Below are positions 97-5,513 of a DNA stretch of 5,599 nt, piece after piece. The DNA is from Planctomycetota bacterium (lineage in GTDB: Bacteria; Planctomycetota; Phycisphaerae; UBA1845), in contig JADFOB010000111.1 of the NCBI GenBank assembly GCA_022563055.1, positions 1 to 5,599 of the forward strand, read 5' to 3'. Under the pieces are notes generated by a model. That model worked only from the letters and a program-made list of their open reading frames with translations, was not told the DNA's origin and did no database searches. Position 1 is the stretch's first letter; each line of letters starts with the position of its first letter. The position numbers and the translations under genes were made by a program.

Positions 97-351
97 CTGC
101 TCTTGAGCAGTGCAAGACTCAAGCGGCTCGGTCTAGCGCGCATTTCTCACACCGCTTAGAGCGCGGAGAACGCAGAGGTTTGTGTAGAAAGAGATTATGA
201 CAGAATCCGTACGTTCGCTCTTGAGGCACGCTGCATTCTGTTGAACGCGCATTGGCGGCGATCGCTTCTTCTCTTTCCGTCTCCGCGATCTCTGCGGGCT
301 CTGCGGTGAGAAATCCGGGCTAGAATCCCAGAGATCACTGCTCAAGAGCAG
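97..351. repeat. Nested inverted-repeat element (MITE-like or long imperfect hairpin)
   Basis: Matching arms occur in properly nested order around a centre near 220. They are 97-112 with 336-351 (16 of 16, CTGCTCTTGAGCAGTG and its complement), 132-137 with 319-324, 142-150 with 306-314 (ATTTCTCAC/GTGAGAAAT), 162-169 with 280-287 (CGCGGAGA/TCTCCGCG), 188-194 with 270-276, and 200-206 with 235-241 (ACAGAAT/ATTCTGT). The outermost arm is itself nearly palindromic. The inner arms are rich in CGCAGAG/CGGAGA-type words. No reading frame in it looks coding. Seen: one long imperfect fold or eroded inverted repeat. Inferred: a non-autonomous mobile or dispersed palindromic element. No target-site duplication was identified. 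Confidence 0.7.
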
Positions 352-523: not shown

Positions 524-552
524 TTGACAACGGGCCTGTGAGTTTCTAGGAT
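524..552 (+). promoter_or_regulatory. Sigma70-type promoter for the cys leader and cysH
   Basis: A perfect -35 hexamer TTGACA (524-529) is followed by a 17-base spacer and a -10 hexamer TAGGAT (547-552; 4 of 6 to TATAAT). Transcription would start near 558-560, giving a leader of about 240 bases before cysH. The position, just ahead of a structured leader ORF, supports a functional role. The start site is inferred, not measured. Confidence 0.7.
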
Positions 553-564
553 GGGTAGCGTTGT

Positions 565-602
565 GGTGGTTCCAGCGCCAGGGATGTCCTGGCTGGGCCA
601 CC
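565..602 (+). promoter_or_regulatory. 5' leader stem-loop abutting the leader-peptide ribosome-binding site
   Basis: GGTGG (565-569), CCAG (572-575) and CCAGG (578-582) pair in order with CCTGG (588-592), CTGG (593-596) and CCACC (598-602), around the loop GATGT. This gives 14 base pairs with small bulges. The stem starts only a few bases after the predicted transcription start and ends directly before GAGG (603-606). Likely roles are protecting the 5' end or keeping the leader ribosome-binding site unpaired. Confidence 0.65.
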
Positions 603-615
603 GAGGATGGTTACG

Positions 616-678
616 ATGATTCGTCAACCCGTCATGGCACTGTGTTGCTGTTGTTGTTGTACCCCAGGAACAACCTGA
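616..678 (+). CDS. Poly-cysteine leader peptide of the cysH attenuator
   Basis: This 20-codon ORF encodes MIRQPVMALCCCCCCTPGTT. Codons 10-15 (643-660) are TGT TGC TGT TGT TGT TGT, and the stop is TGA at 676-678. The ATG at 616 is chosen because GAGG (603-606) sits nine bases upstream. An in-frame ATG at 607 is too close to that site, and ATG 634 has no site. The peptide itself probably has no function: the run of Cys codons would make ribosome progress depend on charged Cys-tRNA, as Trp codons do in the trp leader. It lies between a strong promoter and alternative RNA helices that end in a terminator, upstream of a cysteine-biosynthesis gene. Poly-Cys leader ORFs acting as cysteine-responsive attenuators are known in mycobacteria. 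A chance TGT microsatellite is the alternative, but the surrounding architecture argues against it. Confidence 0.85.
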   Translation: MIRQPVMALCCCCCCTPGTT

Positions 679-728
679 CGGGTCTTGGAATCATAGGAAT
701 CTGAATCCAGGGGCTCGCGGGTTGTTCC
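627..728 (+). promoter_or_regulatory. Attenuator: competing pre-emptor (1:2) and antiterminator (2:3) helices
   Basis: Helix 1:2 pairs ACCCGTCA (627-634) with TGACGGGT (676-683). Inside it, GTTGTT from the Cys codons (653-658) pairs with AACAAC (669-674). Helix 2:3 pairs GGAACAACCTG (667-677) with CGGGTTGTTCC (718-728), 11 pairs with one G-U. Both use segment 667-683, so they exclude each other. Helix 2:3 also takes the loop and part of the stem of the downstream terminator. Predicted logic: a ribosome stalled on the first Cys codons disrupts 1:2 and leaves segment 2 free, so 2:3 forms and transcription continues. A ribosome reaching the TGA at 676-678 covers segment 2, so the terminator forms. 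Without translation, 1:2 forms and also favours termination. The pairings are visible; the switching is inferred from the trp paradigm. Confidence 0.8.
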
Positions 729-745
729 GGCGGGCCCTTTTGCTT
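709..745 (+). terminator. Intrinsic terminator (3:4) of the cysteine attenuator
   Basis: GGGCTCGC (711-718) pairs with GCGGGCCC (730-737), eight consecutive pairs with one G-U. A G-G mismatch follows, then GG (720-721) with CC (727-728) around the loop TTGTT. A709-T739 and G710-T738 can extend the base. TTTTGCTT (738-745) follows the stem directly, as in a Rho-independent terminator with a slightly interrupted U-tract. It lies 57 bases upstream of the cysH start, so it would block cysH when formed. Confidence 0.8.
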
Positions 746-801: not shown

Positions 802-1521
802 ATGGTAGAAAGACAGCTTATTGCGACTCATCGTGCGACGCCGATGACCGAGGACGCGTCAACCGAGGAGCTGATCGCCTGGACCTTGGACCGGTTCGCC
901 GACCAGCGGATGATGATGACCACGTCGTTCGGGATGGAGGGGTGCGCCCTGCTGGATATGTATGGCCGTCATGGCAGGCCGTTGACGGTCGTCTATCTCG
1001 ACACGATGTTCTTCTTCCCGGAAACCTACGCCCTGCGAGACCGCATGATCGAGCGATACCCGCACATCTCCTTCGAGAATCGCGGGACCACGCTCTCGCC
1101 CCAAGAGCAGGCAGCCATGTACGGTGATGAGCTCTGGAAACACGAGCCCGATAAGTGCTGCCGCCTTAGGAAGGTGGATCCGATGTACGCGGTCATGGCT
1201 GATGTCGACGTCTGGATCACCGGTCTTCGGCGAAGCCAATCGATCACGCGTGCCAATCTTCGTGTCATCGATTGGGACTGGCGCTATCAGGTGCTCAAGA
1301 TCAGTCCGCTGGCGAAGTGGGAGCGGCCCCAGATTTGGGAGTACATCCAGAAGCACGACGTACCCTATAACGAGTTGCACGACAAAGGTTATCCAACGGT
1401 CGGGTGCGTCCAATGCACCAAGCCGGTCGAGGGCTCTGCGCCGGGCGATTACTCGCGCGCGGGCCGATGGAGCGATGTCGACAAGACCGAGTGCGGGCTG
1501 CACGGTGGTGAGGGAATCTAG
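802..1521 (+). CDS. cysH: Assimilatory APS/PAPS reductase, [4Fe-4S] type
   Basis: A cytosolic enzyme that reduces adenylyl sulfate (APS, possibly PAPS) to sulfite with thioredoxin as electron donor. It is 239 aa, normal for the family. Motifs in order: SFGMEG (42-47, nucleotide-binding loop), YLDTMFFFPETY (65-76), CC at 119-120, GLRRSQS (141-147), CVQC (202-205) and the catalytic KTECGLH (C231). The CC plus CxxC set ligates a [4Fe-4S] cluster and is typical of APS-using enzymes; PAPS-only CysH of the E. coli type lacks it. The family usually has LDTG where this protein has LDTM, a mild oddity. The ATG at 802 is preferred, with AGGTGG (792-797) four bases upstream; ATG 844 has no site. It follows the poly-Cys attenuator and so is probably induced when cysteine is scarce. 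The chelatase and cobA follow on the same strand. Confidence 0.93.
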   Translation: MVERQLIATHRATPMTEDASTEELIAWTLDRFADQRMMMTTSFGMEGCALLDMYGRHGRPLTVVYLDTMFFFPETYALRDRMIERYPHISFENRGTTLSPQEQAAMYGDELWKHEPDKCCRLRKVDPMYAVMADVDVWITGLRRSQSITRANLRVIDWDWRYQVLKISPLAKWERPQIWEYIQKHDVPYNELHDKGYPTVGCVQCTKPVEGSAPGDYSRAGRWSDVDKTECGLHGGEGI

Positions 1522-1685: not shown

Positions 1686-2462
1686 ATGAGTAAGTCGGCG
1701 CTGGTTCTGGCTGCCCACGGATCCTCCAGCGAACGCTGTGTGAATCATCAGCTCGAACAACACGGCGTCGAGCTGGCGAAACGGGGACCGTTCGACGAGG
1801 TGGTGACAGCCTTTCACCGGGGCGAGCCGACCTTCGCAACGGTGCTCGATGGACTCTCGGCGGACGACGTTACAGTCGTCCCCGTCATGGCCAGCAACGG
1901 ATACTTTTGTGACAGCGTCTTGCCGCGCGAGCTGGCGAAGAATCAACGATACGCGAACCTGAGCGTTCATACGACCGCGCCGGTGGGAACGCATCCTCGC
2001 ATGGCCTCCCTTGTGGCGGGAAGGGTCGCTCATCTCCTTCAAACGTACAACCTTGCCGCCGATGCAACCACGCTGGCGATCATCGGTCATGGAACGAAGC
2101 GGCACGGTCGTAGTCGTCAGGCTGTCGACGATCTCGTGCGTGCGCTGAGCAACGGGCGTCTGTGTGCGGAGGTAATCGCGGCGTTCCTGGATGAGGCTCC
2201 CTCGGTGGAGACGATTCACGATCGCGCTGCCGGGCCGAACACCGTAGTGGTACCATTCTTAATCGGCGGTGGCGTTCACGCCATGCAGGACGTTCCCAAC
2301 CGGCTTAGCCTGCCTACGTTCGATGGAGCGTCGCTGCCTCGGACCGGGTCTGTGCGTGGTCGTTTCATCGTCTACGATGCTCCGATCGGTAGCGATCCGG
2401 GTATCCTCGAGATTATCGCCGATCTCGCTGGGCTGAATCCATTCGTGAAGGGTTCCCGGTGA
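1686..2462 (+). CDS. cbiX: Two-domain CbiX/SirB-like sirohydrochlorin chelatase
   Basis: Likely inserts Fe2+ (or Co2+) into sirohydrochlorin; iron, giving siroheme, is favoured by the cysH neighbour. At 258 aa it is close to two-domain SirB and twice the length of short CbiX. The N-half starts LVLAAHGSS (6-14, H11) and carries VPVMASNGYF (65-74). The C-half has IIGHGT (132-137, H135), FLDEAPSVETI (167-177) and VPFLIGGGVHAMQDVP (189-204, H198). The two-His metal site (HG plus GxH) looks complete only in the C-half; the N-half has Tyr73 where the second His would fall. This pattern recalls the DR2241-like branch of the family. GGAG (1671-1674) precedes the ATG by 11 bases. The 3' end overlaps cobA by GTGA, implying coupled translation. 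Cobalt chelation for B12 is the main alternative. Confidence 0.82.
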   Translation: MSKSALVLAAHGSSSERCVNHQLEQHGVELAKRGPFDEVVTAFHRGEPTFATVLDGLSADDVTVVPVMASNGYFCDSVLPRELAKNQRYANLSVHTTAPVGTHPRMASLVAGRVAHLLQTYNLAADATTLAIIGHGTKRHGRSRQAVDDLVRALSNGRLCAEVIAAFLDEAPSVETIHDRAAGPNTVVVPFLIGGGVHAMQDVPNRLSLPTFDGASLPRTGSVRGRFIVYDAPIGSDPGILEIIADLAGLNPFVKGSR

Positions 2463-3310: not shown

Positions 3311-3389
3311 ATCAGAGCCCCGAGCGCCAGCGAGCGGGTTTTCCAGTGCGACGCCGGCACCGGTGAAACCCCGCGCTTGGGGCTCTGAT
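3311..3389. repeat. Long palindrome with 17-bp stem downstream of cobA
   Basis: Bases 3311-3327 pair with 3373-3389 (ATCAGAGCCCCGAGCGC with GCGCTTGGGGCTCTGAT), with one G-U and no mismatch. The 45-base interior continues the fold with GGGTTT (3336-3341)/AAACCC (3366-3371) and GTGC (3346-3349)/GCAC (3357-3360). No T-run follows, so it is not a standard intrinsic terminator. It may stabilise or end the cys-cob transcript, or be a copy of a dispersed palindromic repeat of the kind common in planctomycete-like genomes (inference). Confidence 0.65.
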
Positions 3390-3611: not shown

Positions 3612-5513
3612 GTGGAACTTCCTCGCCGTGAACGAGACGACGTCTATCTTCCCGACGGTGCTTTCCGCGCCGCGCTCGATGATCTGAGGCGGTGCACGGA
3701 TGCCCATGATCTGAGCATCGCGATTGTCTACGCGTTCGACTTTCGGACGCGCATGTTGCCCTACTGGTATGTCGACAAACGTATGGCACCCTGTTCGGTA
3801 CGGACGCTGGGCGACGTCCTGCACGCTTCGGGATTCAAGAACGTTCGGATCATCCTGCAGCAGTGGACGCCGAACTTCGCACCGCATCAGGCGATCCTGG
3901 GCAACAAGCCGTTGGACATCCTCATGGTCTCCGCCATGCAGGTCCACGCCGAGCCTTCGTATGCGCTGGTTCGTGACGCCTATCGAATGGGCGACCGGCG
4001 GCCTTTGATTCTCGCGGGCGGTCCCAAGGCCATCTACGAACCGACCGATTATCTTGAGATTGATGGAGAGCGCGGCGTGAGCGCCGATTGCATCGTCACG
4101 GGCGAAGCCTACGTTTTTCTCGATCTGCTGCGGTGTATTCTGAACCACGCTACGGCGGGTGAGTCTCCGTTGACCGCGTTTGGGCGAGCCCGCCGCGAAG
4201 GGGCGCTCGACCGGATACCGGGGCTGGTGTATCTCCCAGCCGACGTGCCGTCCGACAAGCCTTACGCGATCAACACGGGAATCCAGCGGCTCTTGCGCGA
4301 TCTTGACGAAATGCCCATGCCCGACGCGGGCTATCGCATGCTCGAACCTCCGCACCGGCGCCCGACGCTCTCGCGGGAACCCTACGCGCCCCGGAAAGTC
4401 GGGAAGCAATCCATCATCGCGTCGGTCATTGCCACGCACGGTTGCAAGTTCAACTGCTCCTACTGCCCGATCCCGGCGGTCAATCAGCGGACATGGCGAA
4501 GCAAGAGCCCGCAACGGCTGGCGGCCGAGATCAAGAGCATCTACACGAACTTCGGTATCCGCGAGTTCTTCGGCACGGACGACAATTTCTTCAACGATCG
4601 TGAGACGGTGATTGACCTGATGAGCGAACTGGCCCGAACCCGCGTGAAGGGCAAGCCGCTCGCCAAGTACATCCGTTTCTTCACCGAAGCCACGCAGTTC
4701 GACGTGTTCAAGAATCGGGATCTCTTGCCGCTCTGCCGCGAGGGCGGTATGCGAGCGATCTGGTTCGGCATCGAGGATCTTACCGCTGCGCTGGTGAACA
4801 AGGGCCAACAAGAGGACGACACCGCCGATCTATTCCGCGAGTTATGCTCGCTTGGGATCGAGCCCATGGCGATGATGATCCACAGCGACGCTCAGCCGTT
4901 GCGATCCGCTCGGGGCGATCTTTCGGGTCTCTTAAACCAGGCGAAATATCTGTTCGACATCGGAGCGGTGTCCTATCAGTGCACCTATCTCGGACCGGCC
5001 ATCGGTACGCGGGACATCGAGGCGGCGGCGAAGGCCCGTTTCCTCTACAAAACAGTTGGCGGCCGGCGCATTCCCCAAGCCTACCAGGATGGAAACCACG
5101 TCGTCGCCTCCAAGAGCGACACGCCTTGGGAACGGCAGATGAACGTCCTGAGGGCGTACCGGGCTTTCTATAACCCGCTCAACACCCTGCGCACGCTGGG
5201 CAAGGTCGGGCGCGATCCGACGGTCGGTAAGCGTCTACTCTTTCAGTTGATTGGCCAGATCGGTTTGGCCATGACCGCGCCGAAGCTGCGACGCTGGGCT
5301 CGCGAGCTTAAGCGCGGACCGATCGAGGTCTACGACGGTCTTACGCGGGCTCGAATCCCCATGGTGGACGCCGCCGCCGGGCACGAGGTCTTCTGGGCGA
5401 TCGAGCACGTCCCTTCGTCCCATCTCCCCCAAAAGGAAAGCCACCGCCCCTCCGAATCATCCTCCGGCAAGATCACCCGCACGATCAAACCGGTGGAAGT
5501 GACCGTCGGCTAG
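3612..5513 (+). CDS. B12-binding-domain radical SAM protein, substrate unknown
   Basis: A 633-aa protein built like the BchE-type cobalamin-dependent radical SAM enzymes. An N-terminal Rossmann-like B12-binding region (about 35-175) has VRTLGDVLHASGFKNV (63-78), VSAMQV (106-111), LILAGGPKA (132-140) and TGEAYVFLDLL (163-173). The radical SAM core begins at HGCKFNCSYCP (276-286): C278, C282 and C285 form CxxxCxxC for the [4Fe-4S] cluster that cleaves SAM. FFGTDDNFFND (319-329) and IWFGIEDL (383-390) fit the TIM-barrel strands. A helical C-terminal region contains RAYRAFYNPLNTLRTL (514-529), and the end is a polar, Ser-rich tail. The canonical DxHxxG cobalamin ligand motif is absent, as in many such enzymes. 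The GTG start has a perfect AGGAGG (3601-3606) five bases upstream. The 361-base structured gap suggests a transcription unit separate from cobA. Methylation or ring chemistry is possible; I cannot assign a substrate. Confidence 0.85.
   Translation: MELPRRERDDVYLPDGAFRAALDDLRRCTDAHDLSIAIVYAFDFRTRMLPYWYVDKRMAPCSVRTLGDVLHASGFKNVRIILQQWTPNFAPHQAILGNKPLDILMVSAMQVHAEPSYALVRDAYRMGDRRPLILAGGPKAIYEPTDYLEIDGERGVSADCIVTGEAYVFLDLLRCILNHATAGESPLTAFGRARREGALDRIPGLVYLPADVPSDKPYAINTGIQRLLRDLDEMPMPDAGYRMLEPPHRRPTLSREPYAPRKVGKQSIIASVIATHGCKFNCSYCPIPAVNQRTWRSKSPQRLAAEIKSIYTNFGIREFFGTDDNFFNDRETVIDLMSELARTRVKGKPLAKYIRFFTEATQFDVFKNRDLLPLCREGGMRAIWFGIEDLTAALVNKGQQEDDTADLFRELCSLGIEPMAMMIHSDAQPLRSARGDLSGLLNQAKYLFDIGAVSYQCTYLGPAIGTRDIEAAAKARFLYKTVGGRRIPQAYQDGNHVVASKSDTPWERQMNVLRAYRAFYNPLNTLRTLGKVGRDPTVGKRLLFQLIGQIGLAMTAPKLRRWARELKRGPIEVYDGLTRARIPMVDAAAGHEVFWAIEHVPSSHLPQKESHRPSESSSGKITRTIKPVEVTVG

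What the first reader, a model, noticed from the sequence alone, without database searches (positions are those of the whole stretch)
616..678. Six consecutive Cys codons in a 20-codon leader ORF upstream of the sulfur-assimilation reductase
MIRQPVMALCCCCCCTPGTT has a ribosome-binding site, a promoter and a stop codon, and lies 123 bases upstream of cysH, whose pathway makes cysteine. Cys is one of the rarest amino acids, so six in a row in a tiny ORF at this exact place is very unlikely to be chance. This points to a leader that senses cysteinyl-tRNA. Poly-Cys leaders are known in mycobacteria; this window does not look mycobacterial, so it may be an independent or more widespread case.
Basis: partly seen in the sequence, partly recalled or inferred. 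Interest (0 to 1): 0.93.

Follow-up and report, generated by a model that had tools for sequence, protein, structure and literature searches.

The report
Cysteine-sensing attenuator ahead of cysH
A tiny gene made largely of cysteine codons sits with a stop-or-go RNA switch in front of a sulfur-assimilation gene, and the same arrangement recurs in relatives, so these bacteria probably switch on cysteine production when translation runs short of cysteine.

Summary
In detail: MIRQPVMALCCCCCCTPGTT is encoded at 616-678, with six Cys codons at 643-660, 123 nt before a true cysH. In folding, stalling at the first Cys codon gives the antiterminator; a ribosome at the stop codon gives the terminator.

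All 37 rows of the window's CysH clade with readable upstream DNA have a Cys-rich short ORF followed by a hairpin with T-tract (34 by script, 3 by eye). Tail and terminator arm co-vary (n=43; 0 of 20,000 permutations). In 35 of 43 leaders the arm begins 11-18 nt after the last Cys codon; in the window it begins sooner. Copies also precede sulfite reductase and siroheme methylase genes of genomes labelled Acidobacteriota. In 32 of 37 scored leaders a start codon lies 5-12 nt after the -10 box, suggesting leaderless transcripts; the window is an exception.

Best reading: classical ribosome-mediated transcription attenuation sensing charged tRNA-Cys, unlike mycobacterial poly-Cys leaders, for which no conserved terminator is described. 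No experimental evidence. New variant of a known kind.

The parts
524..552 (+). sigma-70-like promoter TTGACA-17-TAGGAT
   Evidence: 10 of 12 matches; TTGAC-like -35 and TANNNT-like -10 boxes precede the leader ORF in most scored relatives
563..619 (+). possible first leader frame (GTG 563 to TGA 617-619) overlapping the leader ATG as ATGA; coupling or a frameshift relative to relatives; uncertain
   Evidence: read; the tool lists this frame from ATG 551 to 619; most scored relatives have one continuous frame from a start 5-12 nt after the -10 box
603..606 (+). Shine-Dalgarno-like GAGG, 9 nt before ATG 616
   Evidence: sequence
616..678 (+). leader ORF MIRQPVMALCCCCCCTPGTT
   Evidence: counterparts upstream of cysH in relatives
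643..660 (+). six Cys codons TGT TGC TGT TGT TGT TGT, the control codons
667..688 (+). antiterminator 5' arm: last three leader codons, stop codon and the bases that follow
   Evidence: duplex -28.4 kcal/mol, z -3.85; MFE fold of 661-745; with the full tail the duplex starts at 664
708..728 (+). antiterminator 3' arm: terminator 5' arm and loop
   Evidence: GGAACAACC 667-675 is the exact reverse complement of GGTTGTTCC 720-728
709..739 (+). intrinsic terminator hairpin, followed by an imperfect T-tract (to about 745)
   Evidence: dG -21.6 to -22.3; fold of 690-745; not found by the stock scanner
802..1521 (+). cysH, phosphoadenylyl-sulfate reductase family
1686..2462 (+). CbiX-family chelatase-like protein, probably siroheme branch of the same operon (operon inferred)
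   Evidence: PF01903
2459..3250 (+). uroporphyrinogen-III C-methyltransferase (siroheme synthesis)
   Evidence: TIGR01469, 277.6 bits against cut-off 185

Best explanation
This is a cysteine-responsive, ribosome-mediated transcription attenuator of the sulfate-assimilation genes cysH-cbiX-cobA. Transcription starts near 560 and the leader ORF is translated as it is made. When Cys-tRNA(Cys) is scarce the ribosome stalls on the early Cys codons of 643-660; the leader's last codons and stop region (667-688) stay free and pair with the terminator's 5' arm and loop (708-728), so the polymerase reads on into cysH. When Cys-tRNA is plentiful the ribosome reaches the stop codon at 676-678 and covers that arm, so the terminator (709-739) forms and transcription ends. 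With no ribosome the folding of the window also favours the terminator. Computed here: the parts, their conservation, the co-variation and the spacing. Inferred: translation, stalling, termination, response to cysteine.
For: (1) Gene: cysH plus siroheme enzymes. (2) Conservation: 37 of 37 CysH-clade rows with readable upstream have a Cys-rich ORF and a hairpin with T-tract, 34 by script (L004 and L013 with only 3 Cys in 8 codons) and 3 by eye. (3) Terminator 22-51 nt after the leader stop in 27 of 27 first-round leaders. (4) Co-variation: cognate tail-arm pairing -22.55 against -17.02 kcal/mol non-cognate, 0 of 20,000 permutations as good, n=43; 0 of 20,000 also for 33 dereplicated rows (first test, n=27). 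(5) Spacing: in 35 of 43 the arm begins 11-18 nt after the last Cys codon, although the stop codon moves. (6) Switch: with a ribosome at a Cys codon the 5' arm is already paired upstream (P>0.5) before the 3' arm is made in 38 of 43 leaders; with a ribosome at the stop codon in 5 of 43, and then the terminator forms (P>0.5) in 43 of 43. Window: antiterminator 0.92 when stalled at the first Cys codon, terminator 0.98 at the stop codon. (7) Specificity: of 44 distinct scan hits in 1.82 Mb (both strands of 260 loci) one is an antisense artefact and one (L140) precedes an unidentified gene upstream of cysH; the rest precede cysH, sulfite reductase, siroheme methylase followed by cysH, or ATP sulfurylase. 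The loci were fetched mainly with those genes as bait. (8) In G005, G826 and G740 a copy also precedes a NirA-family sulfite/nitrite reductase.
Against: No expression data of any kind. In the window the T-tract is imperfect (TTTTGCTT) and the stock scanner found no terminator there. The window's arm begins 3-7 nt after the last Cys codon, closer than in most relatives, so stalling at the last codons would mask it; folding with a stall at the last Cys codon favours the terminator (0.94). At equilibrium with the full hairpin, stalled states favour the terminator in 31 of 43 leaders, so most switches would have to work kinetically. Antiterminator z-scores are modest in many loci (mean -1.87; 11 of 27 below -2; L020 and L022 above 0.7). 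In 12 of 43 leaders, all from the G005-phylum set, the arm ends 11-35 nt before the stop codon, so a terminating ribosome may not cover it. The script ignored the first 9 nt after the last Cys codon, which sets a floor on the spacing. The window lacks the leaderless-like start of its relatives. Several rows (L024/L025, L010/L012/L017/L028, L020-L022) are close kin, not independent.
Confidence: 0.87

Rival explanations
1. Translation attenuation as in mycobacteria: ribosome stalling on the poly-Cys ORF frees the cysH ribosome-binding site rather than preventing termination.
For: Poly-Cys short ORFs before cys operons are described in mycobacteria, where they are reported to act on translation (passages of PMC13236596 and PMC9031893). 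Start codons here look leaderless, as there.
Against: Terminator hairpins with T-tracts in 27 of 27 first-round leaders. The distance from hairpin to the start of the cysH match ranges from 28 to 364 nt, which does not fit sequestration of the cysH SD. The co-varying partner is the terminator arm. Pairing to the cysH SD was not tested directly.
Confidence: 0.07
2. The peptide, not the codons, is the sensor: a Cys-rich nascent chain binds a metal or redox signal and stalls, as I recall for Cys-motif copper-responsive uORFs (of PMC9426467 only the search listing with the abstract's start was seen).
For: Cys clusters can bind metals (general knowledge); several leaders have spaced motifs such as CLCCC.
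Against: Peptide sequence, Cys number (3 to 7 in 8 codons) and flanking residues vary widely, while the distance from the last Cys codon to the arm is mostly kept. The identified genes assimilate sulfate.
Confidence: 0.03
3. Chance or low-complexity artefact: a TGY repeat that happens to lie upstream of cysH; in the window another frame (TTG 561 to TGA 704) reads the run as Leu.
For: (TGY)6 occurs in 153 of 248 and 97 of 247 genomes. The Leu frame exists.
Against: Of 43 background runs within 30 codons of a stop in loci L157-L216 (60 loci, one per genome, a part of all matches), 4 were followed by a hairpin-plus-T site, the strongest -10.0 kcal/mol, against -12.5 to -29.9 at cys genes (the scan itself required -12). 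Runs at cysH are interrupted by other codons in the Cys frame.
Confidence: 0.02

Closest known systems
Mycobacterial polycysteine leaderless short ORFs (Canestrari et al. 2020; not held; known here from citing passages)
   Same: Runs of Cys codons in a short ORF before cysteine genes; leaderless start (inferred here for most scored relatives).
   Different: There: reported as acting on translation, and no conserved terminator hairpin in Mycobacterium (PMC1262725 passages). Here: terminator plus co-varying antiterminator, other phyla.
Candidate cys/cbs leader peptides of Actinobacteria (Seliverstov et al. 2005, PMC1262725, passages)
   Same: Short ORFs with Cys runs near the stop codon upstream of cys operons.
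   Different: The authors found no conserved terminators there and called the mode of regulation unknown.
uORFC-8-2 motif, Rhodobacterales cysS (PMC8632094, passages)
   Same: Cys codons in a uORF followed by a terminator stem and U run; ribosome-mediated attenuation proposed.
   Different: Two tandem Cys codons, upstream of the tRNA synthetase gene, one order of Alphaproteobacteria. No Rfam family matched the window or nine of our loci at gathering score.
Leaderless attenuator leaders of other amino acids: trpL, leuL, ilvL of Streptomyces lividans (PMC8079986 passages), trpL of Sinorhizobium meliloti (PMC10117765 passages)
   Same: Leaderless leader peptide, control codons, in several cases a Rho-independent terminator.
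   Different: Not cysteine; the eight S. lividans leaders listed include no cysteine one. So the leaderless layout is not new in itself.
tRNA-Cys T-boxes (recalled)
   Same: Sense charging of tRNA(Cys).
   Different: Direct tRNA binding without a leader peptide; no T-box hit in the Rfam scans.

Membership tests
Ribosome-mediated transcription attenuator (trp/his type) | Short ORF rich in codons for the pathway product, upstream of the biosynthetic gene | tested here: met
Ribosome-mediated transcription attenuator (trp/his type) | Intrinsic terminator between leader ORF and first gene | tested here: met
   27 of 27 first-round leaders; the window's T-tract is imperfect and the scanner found none
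Ribosome-mediated transcription attenuator (trp/his type) | Antiterminator mutually exclusive with the terminator, supported by co-variation | tested here: met
   not convincing in every single locus
Ribosome-mediated transcription attenuator (trp/his type) | Arm free when stalled at control codons, masked at the stop codon | tested here: met
   for the window and most leaders; in 12 of 43 the arm ends 11-35 nt before the stop codon and fits less well
Ribosome-mediated transcription attenuator (trp/his type) | Read-through responds to the amino acid or charged tRNA | not testable with these tools
   needs reporter or RNA data
Mycobacterial polycysteine attenuator | Poly-Cys short ORF before cysteine genes | tested here: met
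Mycobacterial polycysteine attenuator | Leaderless short ORF | tested here: inconclusive
   32 of 37 leaders with a scored promoter (of 43) have an in-frame start 5-12 nt after the -10 box, against 2 and 3 of 37 in the other frames; the window does not; no transcript data
Mycobacterial polycysteine attenuator | Acts on translation, without an intrinsic terminator | tested here: not met
   terminator present
uORFC-8-2 (Rhodobacterales cysS) | Upstream of cysS with two tandem Cys codons | tested here: not met
   gene is cysH, six Cys codons
T-box riboswitch | T-box sequence and structure | tested here: not met
   no Rfam hit at gathering score in the window or nine loci

The most novel reading that the evidence does not exclude
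A portable cysteine regulon built on leaderless transcription attenuators: in Planctomycetota and Acidobacteriota a transcript that begins at the leader's start codon carries a poly-Cys sensor whose tail and stop region double as antiterminator. The cysH-plus-leader unit moved from Phycisphaerae-like bacteria into Acidobacteriota and was copied in front of sulfite reductase, while other Acidobacteriota carry different leader-terminator types on cysH, siroheme and possibly ATP-sulfurylase genes, so cysteine attenuation may be a widespread or repeatedly evolved way to control sulfate assimilation.
Probability: 0.5. Interest if true: 0.72.

Novelty: new variant of a known kind. Interest (0 to 1): 0.62.

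Why it matters
I found no report of cysteine attenuation in Planctomycetota or Acidobacteriota in the listings of searches (lists capped; most subscription papers not held). If true, the find gives a testable switch for sulfate assimilation in these phyla, shows a poly-Cys leader with the terminator and antiterminator that the 2005 survey did not find in Mycobacterium, and suggests that cysteine attenuation exists here besides Actinobacteria and Alphaproteobacteria, with more than one final step. It also offers a natural sensor of tRNA-Cys charging.

Tried and rejected
A covariance model of the leader (R1) found the known copies but across 392 genomes of the phylum mostly hit terminator-like sites (115 genomes at E<=0.001, only G001 below 1e-7), so it was not used for counting. 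(TGY)6 searches were too noisy to find new leaders. No leader passed the scan in the sulfite-reductase loci of G677, G003, G574, G578, G563 (L220-L224) and G002 (L230), nor in 29 of 30 ATP-sulfurylase loci. 19 distant CysH genes of the same class (L113-L131) had none with a terminator. A synonymous-change test on five close pairs had too few changes to decide translation; the ORF is better conserved than its upstream flank, 98% against 71% in L020/L022 and 93% against 61% in L010/L012. The 'Alphaproteobacteria' title of L017 was set aside: its genome falls in the class of G001. One script looked at one strand only and was redone. Tree: of 102 rows, 21 were dropped (20 near-duplicates and L107, which has 2 nt upstream), leaving 81; L106, L108, L135 and L027 were labelled 'no' there, which inflates the count of label changes; L142 has only 128 nt upstream. 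L251 was kept out of the n=43 tests as weak. L004 and L013 (3 Cys in 8 codons) are in the n=27 tests, not in n=43. Leaderless layout as a novelty was dropped after searches showed leaderless attenuators of other amino acids.

Full report
Observation. The ORF is present as described: ATG 616, six Cys codons at 643-660, TGA 676-678, cysH ATG at 802. The tool lists the longer ATG 607 version; 616 has GAGG 9 nt upstream. A TTGACA-17-TAGGAT promoter lies at 524-552. The downstream product is a phosphoadenylyl-sulfate reductase (PF01507; NF002537 232.7 bits, cut-off 154), followed by a CbiX-like protein and uroporphyrinogen-III C-methyltransferase. (TGY)6 is absent from 200 shuffles of the window but occurs somewhere in 153 of 248 and 97 of 247 related genomes, so composition alone proves little.

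The missing half. Downstream of the ORF lies a hairpin (709-739, -21.6 to -22.3 kcal/mol) followed by TTTTGCTT. The stock scanner did not call it. GGAACAACC (667-675, the last three leader codons) is the exact reverse complement of GGTTGTTCC in the hairpin loop region (720-728), and pairing extends through the stop codon to 688. Folding with a ribosome at the first Cys codon gives the antiterminator (0.92); at the last Cys codon, at the stop codon, or with no ribosome the terminator (0.94, 0.98, 0.98).

Relatives. A scan of the genome contigs with CysH gave 28 loci: 25 titled Planctomycetota, Phycisphaerae, Phycisphaerales or planctomycete, two Acidobacteria, one Alphaproteobacteria; the last belongs to the class of G001. 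27 had upstream DNA and 26 showed a Cys-rich short ORF; the exception, L027, is masked N there. All 26 plus the window have a terminator 22-51 nt after the stop. Further CysH genes came from 248 genomes of the class (49 with a hit at 1e-40) and 247 of G005's phylum (24 with a hit at 1e-50); that phylum is called Acidobacteriota here from the title of the record behind G005. On a CysH tree of 81 rows the clade holding the window has 38 rows: 34 with leader and terminator by script; L106, L108 and L135 with Cys ORF and hairpin seen by eye; L027 unreadable. Outside it 9 of 43 rows have leader and terminator (L136, L140, L141, L143, L147, L149, L151, L152, L155), all from the G005-phylum search; L146 is a weak tenth. 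The label changes 8 times on the tree, an overcount because those four rows were labelled 'no'. L024, L025, L134 and L135 sit inside the Phycisphaerae-dominated clade, which suggests transfer of cysH with its leader.

Mechanism tests. Tail-to-arm pairing is better within loci than between loci (-20.71 against -16.84, n=27; -22.55 against -17.02, n=43; 0 of 20,000 permutations each; the cognate arm is the single best in 7 of 43 and in the top quarter in 35 of 43). The distance from the last Cys codon to the arm is 11-18 nt in 35 of 43 (range 9-47; the script ignored the first 9 nt); in the window it is really 3-7 nt, so only stalls on the earlier Cys codons would leave the arm free. Two-stage folding: arm sequestered before the 3' arm is made in 38 of 43 stalled leaders against 5 of 43 at the stop codon; terminator at the stop codon in 43 of 43. 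But at equilibrium stalled leaders still favour the terminator in 31 of 43, so the switch must be partly kinetic. In 12 of 43, all from the G005-phylum set, the arm ends 11-35 nt before the stop codon.

Genes controlled. The Cys-ORF-plus-terminator scan over 260 loci (1.82 Mb both strands, window not included) gave 44 distinct hits. One is an antisense artefact of L136; the others lie upstream of cysH, of a NirA-family sulfite/nitrite reductase (G005, G826, G740), of siroheme methylase followed by cysH (L136, L141), or of ATP sulfurylase (L251, weak); the gene right after L140's leader, upstream of cysH, was not identified. This sample is biased, because loci were fetched mainly with these genes. 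Of 43 background (TGY)6 runs near a stop codon in L157-L216, none had a terminator stronger than -10.0 kcal/mol.

Start of the leader. In 32 of the 37 leaders for which a promoter was scored (of 43; 6 had none) an in-frame start codon (29 ATG) lies 5-12 nt after the -10 box, against 2 and 3 of 37 in the other two frames. This implies leaderless or nearly leaderless transcripts; there are no TSS data. The window differs: its nearest in-frame start is 54 nt after the -10 box, and a GTG-563 frame ends in TGA overlapping ATG 616. Coupling, an independent SD start or an assembly frameshift are all possible.

Codons. In the Cys clusters of 43 leaders TGT outnumbers TGC 162 to 70; in the window's four other genes the counts are 7 TGT and 17 TGC.

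Known work (passages seen only). Poly-Cys leaders are described for mycobacteria (Canestrari 2020, not held; cited in passages) and for Mycobacterium, Propionibacterium and Bifidobacterium without conserved terminators noted in Mycobacterium (PMC1262725), and a two-Cys attenuator before cysS in Rhodobacterales (PMC8632094). Leaderless attenuator leaders for other amino acids are known (PMC8079986; PMC10117765). The listings of searches (several capped) showed no cysteine attenuator in Planctomycetota or Acidobacteriota; PMC4833913 (passages) discusses leader genes in these phyla without the word cysteine, and PMC2965389 (passage) has it only in a reference.

Changes on checking. The spacing count was mended from 33 to 35 of 43, the window's own short spacing was added, and the frame control and two papers were added; confidence was lowered from 0.88 to 0.87 for the window's spacing, the translation rival raised from 0.06 to 0.07, and interest from 0.64 to 0.62 and the novel case's from 0.75 to 0.72 because leaderless attenuators are known.

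Verdict. A cysteine attenuator of the classical transcriptional type, probably leaderless in most relatives: new variant of a known kind.

Noticed in passing
L034 (G005:C97:16622-16758, minus strand), L218, L219: A second leader copy lies before a NirA-family sulfite/nitrite reductase in three genomes of G005's phylum search, so the attenuator seems to have been copied onto a second sulfate-assimilation gene.
   Followed up: yes
L147, L149, L151, L152, L155: A distinct leader type (such as MVSPACCCCCCCRPTRPTGGSG) with a different terminator arm (CCCACTGCC, one variant CCCCACTGCC) before cysH, with a sulfite/nitrite reductase-like gene close by.
   Followed up: partly
L251, about 700-860: A weaker Cys-containing ORF plus terminator before ATP sulfurylase in G753.
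   Followed up: partly
L129 (G225), upstream of cysH: An ORF ending LCACCCCCGTCC upstream of a distant cysH without a terminator; might be chance or another kind of control.
   Followed up: no
window 3311-3389: 17-nt inverted repeat (94% complementary) with 45 nt between the arms, between the siroheme methylase and the radical SAM gene.
   Followed up: no
window 97-112 and 336-351: Perfect 16-nt inverted repeat, with a second one (132-150/306-324) nested inside, upstream of the promoter; perhaps a small palindromic or mobile element.
   Followed up: no
window 3612-5513: Radical SAM protein with a weak B12-binding match (below cut-off) and no NCBIfam match above cut-off (best 47.3 bits, cut-off 360).
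   Followed up: no
L017 / G004: Record titled Alphaproteobacteria bacterium falls in the class of the Phycisphaerae-titled genome G001: probably mislabelled.
   Followed up: partly
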